Positions 29,431 to 33,100 of a DNA stretch of 33,100 nt are shown piece by piece. The translations under genes were made by a program, and so were the position numbers. The notes beneath the pieces are model-generated. The model saw nothing but the letters and a program-made list of their open reading frames with translations. It was not told the DNA's origin and did not search any database. The stretch comes from Schwartzia sp. (in: firmicutes) (lineage in GTDB: Bacteria > Bacillota > Negativicutes > Selenomonadales > Selenomonadaceae). Location: contig JAFSWT010000027.1 of NCBI GenBank assembly GCA_017444395.1, forward strand, positions 1 to 33,100. Reading direction: 5' to 3'. How positions within the stretch are numbered: position 1 is the first letter of the stretch; each line of letters starts with the position of its first letter.

Positions 29431-30744
29431 ATGGCAAAAAACACGCCGGTTCAGCACGTCTGCAGCTTCTGCAAGCGGCTCATCACCATCCGCGACCAGT
29501 ACGACCTGCCGATTTTCGACCCGCAATCGGGCTTCGCAATCTGCAAGAGCTGCATCAAGGACATCTACCGTTTCCTGGAGGAGCATGACCAAAACGTCGA
29601 GCAGAAGCACAAGAAGAATTTTGCCGCTTCGCTGGACGCCGCGCTGGAAAAGAACAAGCCCCATATCATCAAGGAATACCTCGACCAGTACATCATCGAG
29701 CAGGACCGGGCAAAGAAGGTCCTGGCGGTGGCGGTCTATAACCACTACAAGCGCATGAAGTACGGCTACGAGACCCAGCCGGGCGAGACGGAAATCGAGA
29801 AATCCAACGTCATCATGCTGGGCCCCTCGGGCTGCGGCAAGACGGCGCTGCTGTCGCATCTCTCCACGATGCTCGACATCCCCTTCGCCGTCACCGACGC
29901 CTCCAGCCTCACCGAGGCCGGCTTCGTCGGCGCCGACGTCGAGGTGGCGGTTCGCAATCTCTACTACGCCGCCGACAAAGACATCGAGCGCACGGAGCAC
30001 GGCATCATCTACCTTGACGAATTCGACAAGATTGCCCGCAAATCCGGCGAGAACAACTCCATCACCGCCGACCCCGGCCATGAGGGTGTCCAGCAGGCGC
30101 TGCTCAAGATGCTGGAAGGCAGCCAGGTGGAATTCACGGCCCGGGGCCAGCGCAAACACCCCGAAGCGCCCACCATCAAGGTCAATACCCAGAACATCCT
30201 GTTCATCGTCGGCGGCGCCTTCGTGGGCATCGACGACGTAATCGCCAAACGGCTCCAGAAGTCCGACGCCAACATCGGCTTCGGCGCCAAAGTGGAAGGC
30301 GAGAAGGACAAGGCGAAATACGACGAGCTCATCCGTCAGGTGAACCCGGAGGATTTGATGAAGTACGGCATCATCCCGGAAATCATCGGCCGCCTCCCCA
30401 TCATCTGCACCCTGGAAACCCTGGACGAGAACGCCCTGCTGCGCATCCTGACGGAACCGATAAACGCGCCGGTCCGCCAGTACCAGAAACTCCTGGCCAT
30501 GGACCACGTCAAGCTGGAGTTTGAGGATGCGGCGCTGCGGGCCGTGGCGAAGAAGGCCATCGAGCGCAAGACCGGCGCCCGCAGCCTCAAAGGCATCATC
30601 GAAGACGTGATGCTCGACGTCATGTTCGACATCCCGCGCTCCGCCGAGCCGCGCCGGGTGACCATCACCGAGGCCTGCATCACCGAGGGCGCCCGCCCCG
30701 AGGTCGAGTTACTGGAAGAAGACGAGGAAAGCTGGTCGGCATAA
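29431..30744 (+). CDS. clpX: ClpX-type AAA+ unfoldase, divergent form
   Basis: An ATP-dependent unfoldase, probably delivering substrates to ClpP. The start ATG 29431 follows AAGGAAGGA. It has 437 residues. An N-terminal zinc domain has Cys11/Cys14 and Cys38/Cys41; the spacing of 23 residues between pairs exceeds the usual 18. Walker A is GPSGCGKT (131-138), Walker B IIYLDEFD (192-199), the RKH loop 241-243, and the IGF loop for ClpP docking 282-284. The sensor-2 motif KTGARSLKG has Arg384. The pore-1 loop is GFVG (164-167) instead of GYVG. It stands alone, without tig or clpP, so it may be a paralogue beside a canonical clpX elsewhere. Confidence 0.9.
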   Translation: MAKNTPVQHVCSFCKRLITIRDQYDLPIFDPQSGFAICKSCIKDIYRFLEEHDQNVEQKHKKNFAASLDAALEKNKPHIIKEYLDQYIIEQDRAKKVLAVAVYNHYKRMKYGYETQPGETEIEKSNVIMLGPSGCGKTALLSHLSTMLDIPFAVTDASSLTEAGFVGADVEVAVRNLYYAADKDIERTEHGIIYLDEFDKIARKSGENNSITADPGHEGVQQALLKMLEGSQVEFTARGQRKHPEAPTIKVNTQNILFIVGGAFVGIDDVIAKRLQKSDANIGFGAKVEGEKDKAKYDELIRQVNPEDLMKYGIIPEIIGRLPIICTLETLDENALLRILTEPINAPVRQYQKLLAMDHVKLEFEDAALRAVAKKAIERKTGARSLKGIIEDVMLDVMFDIPRSAEPRRVTITEACITEGARPEVELLEEDEESWSA

Positions 30745-30833: not shown

Positions 30834-30866
30834 CAAAGCAATCACGCCCTCCCGGAGGGGGCTTTG
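30834..30866. terminator. second hairpin next to the clpX terminator
   Basis: CAAAGC (30834-30839) with GCTTTG (30861-30866) encloses CCCTCC (30847-30852) with GGAGGG (30854-30859). The T-run is weak. It abuts the clpX terminator and precedes the TA promoter region. Confidence 0.4.
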
Positions 30867-30883
30867 TCATGGCATTGAGGCCG

Positions 30884-30949
30884 GCTTCATGATGCATTGC
30901 TCCCTTCGCCGAGGTTTGACTTTTGGGGAAACGAAAGGTATGATAGAGG
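30884..30949 (+). repeat. shared TA promoter region, copy 1
   Basis: Aligns without gaps to 32271-32336 (constant offset 1387). The last 49 bases match at about 38 positions. It begins with GCTTC(A/C)TGATGCA and includes the whole promoter. The two copies precede unrelated toxin-antitoxin modules. Confidence 0.7.
30916..30944 (+). promoter_or_regulatory. promoter of the YoeB-type TA module
   Basis: TTGACT (30916-30921), 17 bases, then TATGAT (30939-30944), about 40 bases before the antitoxin start. Nearly identical to the promoter at 32303-32331. Confidence 0.75.
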
Positions 30950-30982
30950 AAACGAAGTGGATATGGACAAGGAGATGATTTT

Positions 30983-31228
30983 ATGGAACTCGCGCTGTCC
31001 TTCAGCGACGCCGACGCCGCCCGCATCAAACACTATGCGGCGAAAAAGAATATGAATGTCCTCGACTATGCGAAACGCGCGGTGATGAAACCCATCGAAG
31101 AGGAAGATTCGCTTGCCGCACAAAACGCCGCGTATGCGGCAAAGATTGAAGAGAGCCGCAAGCAGTTTGCCGAGGGGCGGTTTGTGACAAAAACCTGGGA
31201 GGAGTTGGCGCAGCTTGCCCATGAATAA
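30983..31228 (+). CDS. ribbon-helix-helix/RelB-like antitoxin
   Basis: An 81-residue protein preceding a YoeB-type toxin. The start ATG 30983 has AAGGAG about 8 bases upstream. The N-terminal half (MELALSFSDADAARIKHYAAKKNMNVLDYAKRAV, written here only in outline) has the beta-strand then two-helix pattern of ribbon-helix-helix DNA-binding proteins. The acidic, helical C-terminal half (EESRKQFAEGRFVTKTWEEL) would wrap the toxin. Known antitoxins of this kind neutralise the toxin and repress their own promoter. Its stop overlaps the toxin start by 8 bases. The RHH family rather than the Phd/YefM fold usual for yoeB partners is an inference from the N-terminus. Confidence 0.82.
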   Translation: MELALSFSDADAARIKHYAAKKNMNVLDYAKRAVMKPIEEEDSLAAQNAAYAAKIEESRKQFAEGRFVTKTWEELAQLAHE

Positions 31229-31481
31229 GCAATTCTCCGACCAGACATGGCAAGAGCTTGTGGAATGGGTGCATGAGGACCGCAAAACCGTAGACAAGAT
31301 TTATGACTTGCTTCGCGACATCGAAAGAAACGGCGCCTCAAAAGGGATGGGCAAGCCCGAATATTTGAAGCATTTGCGGGCATGGAGCCGTCGCATCGAT
31401 CAAAAGAACCGACTGCTTTACGAGGTAGACGGCGACAATCTCATGATACATTCCTGCAAAGGCCATTATGGCGACAAGTAA
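31221..31481 (+). CDS. yoeB: Txe/YoeB family toxin (mRNA interferase)
   Basis: An 86-residue ribosome-dependent mRNA endonuclease homologue. ATG 31221 aligns exactly with the E. coli YoeB N-terminus (second conserved Trp at residue 10). TTG 31215 is better spaced from AGGAG and remains possible. The pattern SDQTWQELVEW, KGMGKPEYLKHL, AWSRRIDQKNRLLYEV and SCKGHY matches the family. Glu47, Arg64 and His82 fall at the positions of the E. coli catalytic residues Glu46, Arg65 and His83. The toxin therefore looks intact and active. It is translationally coupled to the upstream antitoxin and closed by a terminator 10 bases downstream. Confidence 0.93.
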   Translation: MNKQFSDQTWQELVEWVHEDRKTVDKIYDLLRDIERNGASKGMGKPEYLKHLRAWSRRIDQKNRLLYEVDGDNLMIHSCKGHYGDK

Positions 31482-31490
31482 GAAAGGTCC

Positions 31491-31515
31491 GCCCCGCATA
31501 CGCGGTGCATTTTTT
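31491..31515 (+). terminator. terminator of the YoeB module
   Basis: GCCCCGC (31491-31497) and GCGGTGC (31502-31508) form a stem with one mismatch and a 4-base loop, followed by ATTTTTT. It starts 10 bases after the toxin stop. Confidence 0.7.
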
Positions 31516-31534
31516 ATTCTCTTTTCCGCCGGAG

Positions 31535-31561
31535 CATCAAAGCTGGCTCTGCCAGCCTCCC
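31535..31561. repeat. TA tail repeat, copy 1
   Basis: CATCAAAG, four variable bases, then CTCTGCCAGCCTCCC. It lies 20 bases after the end of the terminator T-run. The same 23 fixed bases recur at 33040-33066 after the BrnT/BrnA terminator. In this copy the variable bases create a small hairpin (GCTGGC/GCCAGC). Confidence 0.75.
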
Positions 31562-31572
31562 AGCGAAAATCC

Positions 31573-31935
31573 TCACAGCATAAACATCACACTCACCCCG
31601 CCGGTGAAGCCTCTTTTTTTGCCGGCGAAGGCGGAGAGGTTGAGGTCGAGGGTTATGGGGGAGTTGTCGCCCGGTTTCATGGTGGCGCCGATCTCGCCGC
31701 GCAGACTGCCGCCGCTGGTGTCGGCGCCTTCGATGGCGTAGCCGTCGGCTTTGCCGGTGGCTTTGCCGTCGAGTTCGTGCTCGTAGGCGAGGCCGCCGTA
31801 GAAGCTCCACTTGTCCCGCTTCACCGTGTACCTGGCGCCGAGGCGGAGCACCTGGCTCGTCACGGCGTCGAGGTCGTAGTGACCGCCGGCGTCGAAGCTG
31901 ACGCCGCGACGGCGGTTGAAGTAGTATTTGCCGGA
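31573..31935 (-). pseudogene. autotransporter beta-barrel C-terminal remnant
   Basis: On the minus strand about 120 codons read as the end of an autotransporter outer-membrane barrel: YYFNRRRGVSFDAGGHYDLD, LRLGARYTV, WSFYGGLAYEHELDGKATG, GEIGATMKPG, LDLNLSAFAGKKRGFTGG, then the terminal VSVMFML. Alternating hydrophobic strands and the closing strand fit the family, although most members end in Phe. A full barrel has about 250-300 residues and follows a large passenger. Here the homology stops near 31935 and the frame continues to 32046 as unrelated sequence. With no passenger, start or signal peptide it is a 5'-truncated remnant. It shows that the lineage has an outer membrane. Confidence 0.8.
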
Positions 31936-31938
31936 ACG

Positions 31939-32171
31939 CCGGATATTTCCATTGACGGCGTGCTGTGGGAGATCAAGTCTCCTACCGGAAACAGCAGGCA
32001 TACGATGAAGCATACGCTTCAGAAGGCAGCGCATCAATCCAATCATGTTATCGTGGATTTAAGGAGATGCCGCAAGACGGCGCTGCCAAGGAACTTGCGC
32101 ACCATTTCAACTTGTCAAGGCGAATCCGCCGCATGATAATTATTACCGCCGATGAACCAAAAAATCATTGA
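31939..32171 (+). pseudogene. CdiA-type nuclease toxin C-terminal remnant, frameshifted
   Basis: The plus strand reads PDISIDGVLWEIKSPTGNS, then TMKHTLQKAAHQSNHVIVDLRR, and after a frame change near 32059-32068 continues MPQDGAAKELAHHFNL, then RRIRRMIIITADE, stopping at 32171. This is the pattern of the tRNA-nuclease C-terminal domains (BECR fold) found at the ends of CdiA contact-dependent inhibition proteins and some phage MuF toxins: a D-G-x-x-x-E/D-x-K core, a helix, the DLRR strand and a final hydrophobic strand. The two halves are in frames differing by one base. There is no N-terminal part and no immunity gene. It starts 3 bases from the barrel remnant on the other strand. Confidence 0.65.
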
Positions 32172-32206
32172 CTTTGCGAAATAAGAGGTTTACTATAGTA
32201 TTACAA

Positions 32207-32251
32207 GGTGCGGACCGGCGTTGAATATGCGCGGGGGCCGCACCATTTTTT
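32207..32251 (+). terminator. terminator after the nuclease remnant
   Basis: GGTGCGG (32207-32213) pairs with CCGCACC (32238-32244), followed by ATTTTTT. The loop is 24 bases. A small perfect palindrome TACTATAGTA lies just upstream at 32191-32200. Confidence 0.7.
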
Positions 32252-32270: not shown

Positions 32271-32336
32271 GCTTCCTGATGCACGGATCCTTTCGCGGCA
32301 GTTTGACTTTCGGGGTGGAAATAGGTATGATAGAGG
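32271..32336 (+). repeat. shared TA promoter region, copy 2
   Basis: The second copy of the 66-base segment at 30884-30949, at constant offset without gaps. Conserved blocks are GCTTC(A/C)TGATGCA, TTTGACTTT(T/C)GGGG and AGGTATGATAGAGG. Confidence 0.7.
32303..32331 (+). promoter_or_regulatory. promoter of the BrnT/BrnA module
   Basis: TTGACT (32303-32308), 17 bases, then TATGAT (32326-32331), 22 bases before the GTG start of brnT. Confidence 0.75.
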
Positions 32337-32353
32337 TATGAGGTGAATTATAG

Positions 32354-32647
32354 GTGCGAAAGATTATTTTTGACCGTGTTTTTGAATGGGACGATGAGAA
32401 GGAAAAGCTGAATGACAAAAAGCATGGCGTAGACTTCGATACAGCAGCGCGGGTATTTTTCGACGCCCATCATCTTGAATATCCTGATGAATTCCATAGC
32501 GACGAGGAAGAACGGTATATCGTCCTGGGCATGGTACGAAATGTTCTTTTTGTCGTCTGCACCGACCGGGGCGATACAACGCGCATCATATCCGCAAGAA
32601 AGGCAACTGCCAAAGAGAGGAGAGCTTATTATGGCAATCGTGCGTAA
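32354..32647 (+). CDS. brnT: BrnT family toxin (RelE-fold ribonuclease)
   Basis: A 97-residue BrnT-like toxin. It starts at GTG 32354 with GAGGTGA about 8 bases upstream. The family pattern is clear: FEWDDEKEKLNDKKHGVDF, then AARVFFDAHHLEYPDEFHSDEEERY, VLGMVRNVLFVVCTDRGD, and IISARKATAKERRAYY. BrnT toxins are RelE-fold RNases that inhibit translation and are neutralised by BrnA. The toxin-first gene order is typical of this family. The downstream antitoxin start lies inside its last codons (17-base overlap), so synthesis of the two is coupled. Nothing looks truncated. Confidence 0.92.
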   Translation: MRKIIFDRVFEWDDEKEKLNDKKHGVDFDTAARVFFDAHHLEYPDEFHSDEEERYIVLGMVRNVLFVVCTDRGDTTRIISARKATAKERRAYYGNRA

Positions 32648-32954
32648 ATTTATCCGAGCGGACAAACCGCTGACTCCTGAACAGCTTGAAAAACTCAACG
32701 CCTTGGAAAACCGGCCTATCGTTTTTGATGAAGACTGCCCCGAGCTGACGGACGAGCAGCTTGACAAGATAGCCGCCATGGCGCGGAAGCGCGACGCCGA
32801 GGAGGCGCGGGCGAAGGAACTTCATCTTCAACCGTTGCCGCTCAACGTCCTGCCCTCTACTATCCGCGCCGCCGAGAAGTATGGCGCCGCCGTCATGGGC
32901 CGCCTTTTGGATCTGGCGGTGCAGGACGAGGCCATGATCAAGAAGTGCCTGTGA
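32631..32954 (+). CDS. BrnA-like antitoxin
   Basis: A 107-residue protein directly after and overlapping brnT. The start ATG 32631 follows AGAGAGGAGAG; an open frame runs further upstream but is inside brnT. The N-terminal half (LTPEQLEKLNALENRPIVFDEDCPELTDEQLDKIAAMA in outline) has the acidic, toxin-binding character and the ELTDEQ motif seen in BrnA proteins. The C-terminal half (VLPSTIRAAEKYGAAVMGRLLDLAV) does not show an obvious ribbon-helix-helix domain, so DNA binding and autoregulation are uncertain. Identification rests mainly on position beside brnT. Confidence 0.75.
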   Translation: MAIVRKFIRADKPLTPEQLEKLNALENRPIVFDEDCPELTDEQLDKIAAMARKRDAEEARAKELHLQPLPLNVLPSTIRAAEKYGAAVMGRLLDLAVQDEAMIKKCL

Positions 32955-33020: not shown

Positions 33021-33039
33021 TCGCGCTTATATCGCTGGG

Positions 33040-33066
33040 ACATCAAAGATTACTCTGCCAGCCTCC
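33040..33066. repeat. TA tail repeat, copy 2
   Basis: CATCAAAG, four variable bases, CTCTGCCAGCCTCCC, 20 bases after the terminator T-run, exactly as in copy 1. The final 34 bases of the window hold AAGGAG and an ATG, but the frame stops after two codons, so no gene is called. Confidence 0.75.
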
Positions 33067-33100
33067 CGGATCGCCGGAAGGAGACCACTGCATGATATAG

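What the first reader, a model, noticed from the sequence alone, without database searches (positions are those of the whole stretch)
31573..32171. Two 5'-truncated genes diverging from one junction
An autotransporter barrel end (minus strand) and a CdiA-like nuclease end (plus strand) meet at about 31935-31939. Both have lost their 5' parts and keep their 3' ends. This geometry marks an inversion or deletion breakpoint that fused the tails of two surface or competition proteins between two TA modules. It suggests this locus once carried a contact-dependent or secreted toxin and an autotransporter.
Basis: partly seen in the sequence, partly recalled or inferred. Interest (0 to 1): 0.62.

Follow-up and report, generated by a model that had tools for sequence, protein, structure and literature searches.

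The report
Broken toxin gene, intact RNA partner
Two gene tails really do meet head to head here: a native surface-protein gene and a dead copy of a small nuclease-toxin gene, whose intact relatives almost always sit beside an undescribed short hairpin RNA that survives intact in this window and may be the toxin's antidote.

Summary
The last ~120 residues of an autotransporter barrel (minus strand) and a 5'-truncated CdiA_C nuclease gene (plus strand) meet at 31933-31936. The barrel is native: the sister species carries an intact 1520-codon autotransporter directly after clpX. The nuclease piece is not the end of a long CdiA. It is a decayed copy (first 43 codons lost, reading frame broken twice, natural stop at 32182-32184) of a standalone ~126-residue PD-(D/E)XK gene, not BECR. 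It is foreign: none of 398 other sampled genomes of the phylum has it. The join is a deletion or insertion breakpoint; the contig ends 1.2 kb away, so misassembly is not fully excluded. The unexpected part: in 29 of 31 loci (24 supported by covariance models) the relatives lie next to a ~40-nt hairpin RNA with its own promoter, on the opposite strand in six. It shows covarying stems, has no Rfam match, and is absent from phage MuF-fused versions of the domain. The window keeps this RNA intact (32207-32244; 42 of 43 bases identical to a Lachnospiraceae copy, against 73% for the toxin DNA). Best reading: remnant of an undescribed toxin plus RNA-antitoxin module, analogous to AbiF/type III. RNA function is inferred, not shown.

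The parts
29431..30744 (+). clpX, the conserved anchor gene left of the locus
   Evidence: 96% aa identity to the sister species' ClpX, which is followed directly by the intact autotransporter
30866..31571 (+). ~704-bp islet carrying RelB-like antitoxin (30983-31228) and YoeB toxin (31215-31481), absent from the sister species at this place
   Evidence: G001 has 4 bases where the window has 704; PF06769 E 8e-23
31573..31933 (-). 3' end of a native autotransporter gene, last ~120 codons of the barrel
   Evidence: PF03797 160-253/255; 91% nt to G001:C232:6555-6920; most homologues run on upstream in one frame
31933..31936 (.). junction of the two truncated genes
   Evidence: autotransporter identity ends, nuclease homology starts
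31936..32184 (+). 5'-truncated, twice frame-broken pseudogene of a standalone CdiA_C PD-(D/E)XK nuclease
   Evidence: PF18451 E 4e-12; alignment A1; frames
32168..32196 (+). sigma-70-like promoter TTGACT-17-TACTAT overlapping the nuclease gene's 3' end; predicted to drive the hairpin RNA
   Evidence: same position and spacing as in the relatives
32207..32251 (+). hairpin RNA (32207-32244) plus T-run (32246-32251); intact candidate RNA antitoxin
   Evidence: model R2 E 0.0017; 42/43 identical to L056 RNA; fold -25 kcal/mol
32354..32647 (+). BrnT toxin
   Evidence: PF04365 E 3.6e-26
32631..32954 (+). putative BrnA-position antitoxin
   Evidence: overlaps the BrnT end; same gene order in G029:C58; no Pfam match
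33033..33100 (.). interspersed repeat in which the contig ends
   Evidence: many copies in G000; direct repeat of 31527-31561

Best explanation
The join is an illegitimate-recombination breakpoint, most simply one deletion across two divergently oriented genes. It removed the 5' part of a native autotransporter and the first 43 codons of an imported nuclease gene. The nuclease belongs to a standalone family with the fold of the tRNase CdiA-CT of B. pseudomallei 1026b. Its genes lie beside a ~40-nt hairpin RNA made from its own promoter. Proposed mechanism: the protein is an intracellular nuclease toxin held inactive by binding the hairpin RNA, as AbiF and type III toxins are; if transcription stops, the short RNA is lost and the toxin is freed. 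Here the toxin is dead and the harmless RNA half is still intact. Shown by computation: truncation, frame breaks, fold, gene-RNA association, RNA covariation and promoter. Inferred: that the RNA is made, binds the protein and neutralises it, and which type of rearrangement occurred.
For: Sister species has the whole autotransporter after clpX. Toxin relatives are 126-150-aa ORFs; [quoted passage not shown] only strong PDB match 4g6v, E 2e-7, TM 0.72. RNA beside 29 of 31 loci, 24 with model support; opposite strand in six, each with its own TTGACA-17/18 promoter. Promoter score at least 9/12 in 82% against 6% of control positions. 10 of 11 pairs with two-sided changes, covariation 0.62 against 0.34 in shuffles, 0/500. 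No match above 13 bits in 255 kb of control DNA and none beside phage or MuF-type CdiA_C. Window RNA 98% against toxin 73% identity to L056. G001 keeps a diverged promoter/RNA remnant without toxin.
Against: No expression, binding or toxicity data. Five of the 29 RNAs (L068, L070-L073) were recognised by eye only, and L058 has none. Outer-stem pairing is 77% of cells, and model R2 lost the outer stem. R1 training rows include close relatives, so the truly independent detections are few: L059 E 4e-4, L061 0.017, L063 0.027. Four loci have an HTH gene upstream that could be the regulator or antitoxin. The junction rests on one metagenome assembly, and both relevant contigs end nearby.
Confidence: 0.5

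Rival explanations
1. The hairpin is only the nuclease gene's transcription terminator (plus a promoter for the next gene), with no RNA function.
For: Hairpins are often followed by a T-run, as in terminators.
Against: The promoter lies upstream of the hairpin, so it makes a transcript of about 50 nt. In six loci the hairpin is on the opposite strand with its own promoter. The inner loop sequence is conserved where proteins are only 30-40% identical. 42/43 identity between window and L056 exceeds the toxin's 73%.
Confidence: 0.15
2. The hairpin RNA is a cofactor, guide or substrate of the nuclease rather than an inhibitor.
For: Tight association and covariation fit any RNA-protein partnership; the 1026b-type fold acts on structured RNA, tRNA.
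Against: The window keeps the RNA intact while the protein is dead, and G001 keeps a diverged remnant without the protein, as expected for a harmless antitoxin; this is weak evidence.
Confidence: 0.2
3. The junction is an insertion of an islet (dead nuclease, RNA, BrnTA) into the autotransporter gene, whose 5' part lies on contig C73.
For: C73 starts inside an autotransporter 5' part, 78% aa to the same G001 gene over the barrel-linker region; the other TA islet nearby is a clean insertion.
Against: C73's right flank is not syntenic with the G001 locus; 315 bases of barrel are missing; fbp with a tetR-end remnant lies on C148 without autotransporter.
Confidence: 0.3
4. The junction is an assembly artefact joining two native loci.
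For: One metagenome-type assembly of 163 contigs, 79% complete; both contig ends are close.
Against: At most a few bases are shared at the join, too few for a k-mer misjoin. The right arm carries this genome's own TA promoter repeat and interspersed repeats, so it is not contamination.
Confidence: 0.15

Closest known systems
CdiA-CT of Burkholderia pseudomallei 1026b (PDB 4g6v; PF18451)
   Same: Same Pfam domain and PD-(D/E)XK fold; the characterised member is a tRNase (PMC9086364, PMC9990079)
   Different: Standalone ~126-aa protein without CdiA delivery regions; an RNA rather than a CdiI gene beside it
AbiF/RCd22 and type III toxin-antitoxin systems (ToxIN, CptIN, TenpIN)
   Same: Small toxin protein next to a ~35-40-nt structured RNA with its own promoter, sometimes in two copies (L056, L062); AbiF is neutralised by direct RNA binding (PMC12373285)
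   Different: Nuclease fold is PD-(D/E)XK, not HEPN or ToxN-like; RNA lies downstream or convergent, not in the toxin leader; RNA does not match Rfam abiF
Orphan cdiA-CT/cdiI modules
   Same: Displaced CdiA toxin domains without the full gene
   Different: Orphan modules lack a start codon, begin at the pretoxin motif and lie downstream of cdi loci (PMC9086364); these have start codons and no cdi locus
MuF-fused CdiA_C domains of phages
   Same: Same domain at the C-terminus of head proteins
   Different: Fused to capsid proteins; no hairpin RNA

Membership tests
PF18451 CdiA_C | Pfam profile match above cut-off | tested here: met
   Window piece 46.6 bits; intact relatives 59-66 bits
Contact-dependent inhibition (CdiA) toxin | Toxin domain at the C-terminus of a large two-partner-secreted CdiA, with CdiB/CdiI | tested here: not met
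   Relatives are standalone short ORFs; no other CdiA_C in the genome; no cdi genes recognised in the window
BECR nuclease | BECR fold | tested here: not met
   Model matches PD-(D/E)XK 4g6v only
[quoted passage not shown]
   (intact relative; the window copy lacks the first helix and strand)
Autotransporter barrel (PF03797) | C-terminal beta-barrel domain | tested here: met
   only the last part is present in the window
Type III toxin-antitoxin (RNA antitoxin binds protein toxin) | Structured RNA gene adjacent to the toxin | tested here: met
Type III toxin-antitoxin (RNA antitoxin binds protein toxin) | RNA repeats upstream of the toxin, co-transcribed through a terminator | tested here: not met
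   RNA is downstream or convergent, mostly single copy
Type III toxin-antitoxin (RNA antitoxin binds protein toxin) | RNA neutralises the toxin by direct binding | not testable with these tools
   Needs experiment
Type I toxin-antitoxin | RNA antisense to the toxin mRNA | tested here: not met
   No cognate preference in duplex energies with the toxin 5' region: mean rank 6.2 of 0-15
abiF RNA (RF03085) | Rfam model match | tested here: not met
   No match at the hairpin positions of the window and seven loci

The most novel reading that the evidence does not exclude
Standalone CdiA_C PD-(D/E)XK proteins and their adjacent ~40-nt hairpin RNA form a new toxin/RNA-antitoxin family, spread over Lachnospiraceae, Saccharibacteria, Coriobacteriales, Lactococcus and others, in which a CDI-type tRNase fold is neutralised by a small RNA instead of an immunity protein.
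Probability: 0.45. Interest if true: 0.82.

Novelty: new variant of a known kind. Interest (0 to 1): 0.55.

Why it matters
If the RNA neutralises the nuclease, a toxin fold known from contact-dependent inhibition, where protein immunity is the rule, also works with an RNA antidote. That would add a fold to the few known RNA-neutralised toxins (ToxN-like and AbiF/HEPN) and give an RNA handle for finding such modules, including in Saccharibacteria. The breakpoint itself is an ordinary example of gene decay at a TA-rich spot.

Tried and rejected
CDI or secreted-toxin origin: relatives are standalone. Phage origin: no DNA match in phages, no protein match of the window piece in phages or plasmids, and phage relatives are MuF fusions without RNA. 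Known RNA family: Rfam gave only chance miRNA matches, plus a separate sub-threshold abiF RNA in L080. Type I antisense: no cognate preference. RNA search in viral contigs by its 16-base core: 47 matches, about what chance gives by my estimate; the model matched the pre-selected core but mostly without the outer stem; two other patterns gave none. Conserved HTH partner: present in four Lachnospiraceae loci only, different HTH types. The downstream region of cysK in G000 (C139) does not carry the RNA seen there in G001.

Full report
Observation. The window is a whole contig (G000:C113, 33100 bases) of a 79%-complete assembly of 163 contigs. At 31573-31938 on the minus strand lies the end of an autotransporter barrel (PF03797 160-253/255; TIGR01414 320-432/432). 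At 31924-32133 on the plus strand lies PF18451 CdiA_C, positions 2-48/81, E 4e-12. YoeB with a RelB-like partner lies left and BrnT with a BrnA-position gene right.

The autotransporter side. In the sister species G001 clpX is followed 134 bases later by an intact 1520-codon autotransporter on the opposite strand; its barrel end matches PF03797 3-247/255. The window's tail is 91% identical to it and identity stops at 31933-31936. In most of the homologous loci examined the same barrel end continues upstream in one reading frame. The gene is therefore native to this place and was cut here. Between clpX and the barrel end the window has a 704-bp islet with RelB/YoeB that G001 lacks.

What lies on the other side. 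The 5' part of a similar autotransporter sits at the very start of contig C73, with 315 bases of barrel missing between the two. C73's right flank is not syntenic with the G001 locus. In G001 the autotransporter is followed by a repeat, tetR and fbp; in G000 fbp and a tetR-end remnant lie on C148 next to the same kind of repeat, without autotransporter. C113 itself ends in an interspersed repeat. A deletion across two divergent genes explains both truncations with one event; an insertion, or less likely a misassembly, is not excluded. Contamination is unlikely, because the right arm carries this genome's own TA promoter repeat and interspersed repeats. No long shared sequence exists at the join.

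The nuclease side. The closest relatives (54-68% identity in the best segment) come from Lachnospiraceae, Saccharibacteria, Endomicrobia and Lactococcus genomes, and most are short ORFs of about 126-150 residues with their own start codon. The window copy starts at residue 44 of these, its frame shifts near 32070, shifts again near 32150-32160, and the natural stop is TAA 32182-32184. It is a pseudogene. G+C is 48% against 60% for the window, and no other of 398 sampled genomes of the phylum has the gene at E 1e-6, so it is probably an import. An AlphaFold2 model of the intact relative L056 (mean pLDDT 92.6) has the PD-(D/E)XK core. Its only strong PDB match is 4g6v, CdiA-CT of B. pseudomallei 1026b (E 2.2e-7, TM 0.72), a tRNase (PMC9086364, PMC9990079). 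BECR is thus wrong, and nothing supports a contact-dependent or secreted parent.

The RNA. Downstream of the pseudogene, a promoter (TTGACT 32168-32173, 17 bases, TACTAT 32191-32196) overlaps the gene's end. It is followed by a hairpin, 32207-32244, and a T-run. The same arrangement follows the intact relatives. Of the 31 loci from genome contigs (L056-L086), 29 have a hairpin of this architecture beside the nuclease gene: 24 supported by covariance models at E up to 0.03 (R1, R2) and five by eye (L068, L070-L073). L058 and the broken L085 lack it. In six loci (L059, L074, L078, L081, L082, L084) it is convergent on the opposite strand with its own promoter. The inner arm is conserved in sequence (consensus CAGYGUUGGAUAACRCA; in the window GCGUUGAAUAUGCGC), while outer stems vary and covary. 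In the 13-sequence alignment 10 of 11 pairs show changes on both sides; cells paired 84.6% against 69.1% in shuffles; covariation 0.621 against 0.336, 0/500 shuffles.

Controls for the RNA. R1 gives nothing above 13 bits in 255 kb of unrelated loci, and neither model gives a match with E up to 1 in phage MuF-fused or other distant CdiA_C loci. Promoter scores reach 9/12 in 82% of RNAs against 6% of random positions in the same loci. Model caveat: R1 was trained on 13 rows; its independent detections beyond close relatives are L059 (4e-4) and L061 (0.017). R2, trained without the window but with L056 and L057, finds the window at E 0.0017, L063 at 0.027 and the G001 remnant at 0.08. The RNA is not in Rfam 15.

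Function. The window RNA is 42/43 identical to that of L056, while the toxin DNA is 73% identical; the RNA is thus more constrained than the protein gene. The toxin here is dead and the RNA intact. In G001 a diverged copy of promoter and RNA lies downstream of cysK without the toxin. This asymmetry fits an antitoxin. Antisense pairing with the toxin mRNA 5' region shows no cognate preference, so direct RNA-protein neutralisation, as shown for AbiF/RCd22 (PMC12373285), is the preferred mechanism. Tandem copies in L056 and a second copy in L062 echo the two motifs of RCd22. A cofactor or substrate role for the RNA cannot be excluded. Four loci have an HTH gene just upstream, which may be a regulator.

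Literature. Eight full-text searches of open-access papers found no description of this RNA or of standalone CdiA_C proteins with an RNA partner; subscription papers and preprints were not available.

Verdict. The breakpoint is ordinary gene decay at a TA-rich spot. What raises interest is the module that the broken gene came from.

Noticed in passing
30884-30949 with 32271-32336; 31527-31561 with 33033-33067: The two TA modules share a 66-nt 5' region with promoter (77%) and a 35-nt 3' repeat (83%); a third RelB/YoeB-like module on C21 has similar flanks. They look like cassettes that arrived with a common promoter and a repeat.
   Followed up: partly
L057:4671-4868, L058:4537-4803, L062:4565-4831, L064:4566-4832: Small HTH_3 genes lie directly upstream of standalone CdiA_C genes in four Lachnospiraceae loci.
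   Followed up: partly
L080:266-301: An abiF-like RNA (RF03085, 30.3 bits, below the gathering score of 37) lies just upstream of a CdiA_C gene that has its own hairpin RNA downstream.
   Followed up: no
L041:2312-2396 (G001:C176, minus strand): Sister species carries a diverged copy of the promoter and hairpin RNA downstream of cysK without any nuclease gene; G000 lacks it there.
   Followed up: yes
33050-33100 and many contig ends of G000: A short interspersed repeat (CTCTGCCAGCCTCCC ... GGAAGGAGWCCAC..CATGATA) occurs throughout the genome and at several contig ends, explaining much of the fragmentation.
   Followed up: partly
C108:219-997 and C148:595-759 of G000: tetR next to the autotransporter in G001 is present as a full copy on C108 and as a 3'-end remnant beside fbp on C148.
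   Followed up: partly
L041:1-1686 and G000 contigs C123, C83, C74, C140, C17: A family of large repeat proteins with similar C-terminal ends occurs in several copies near interspersed repeats.
   Followed up: no
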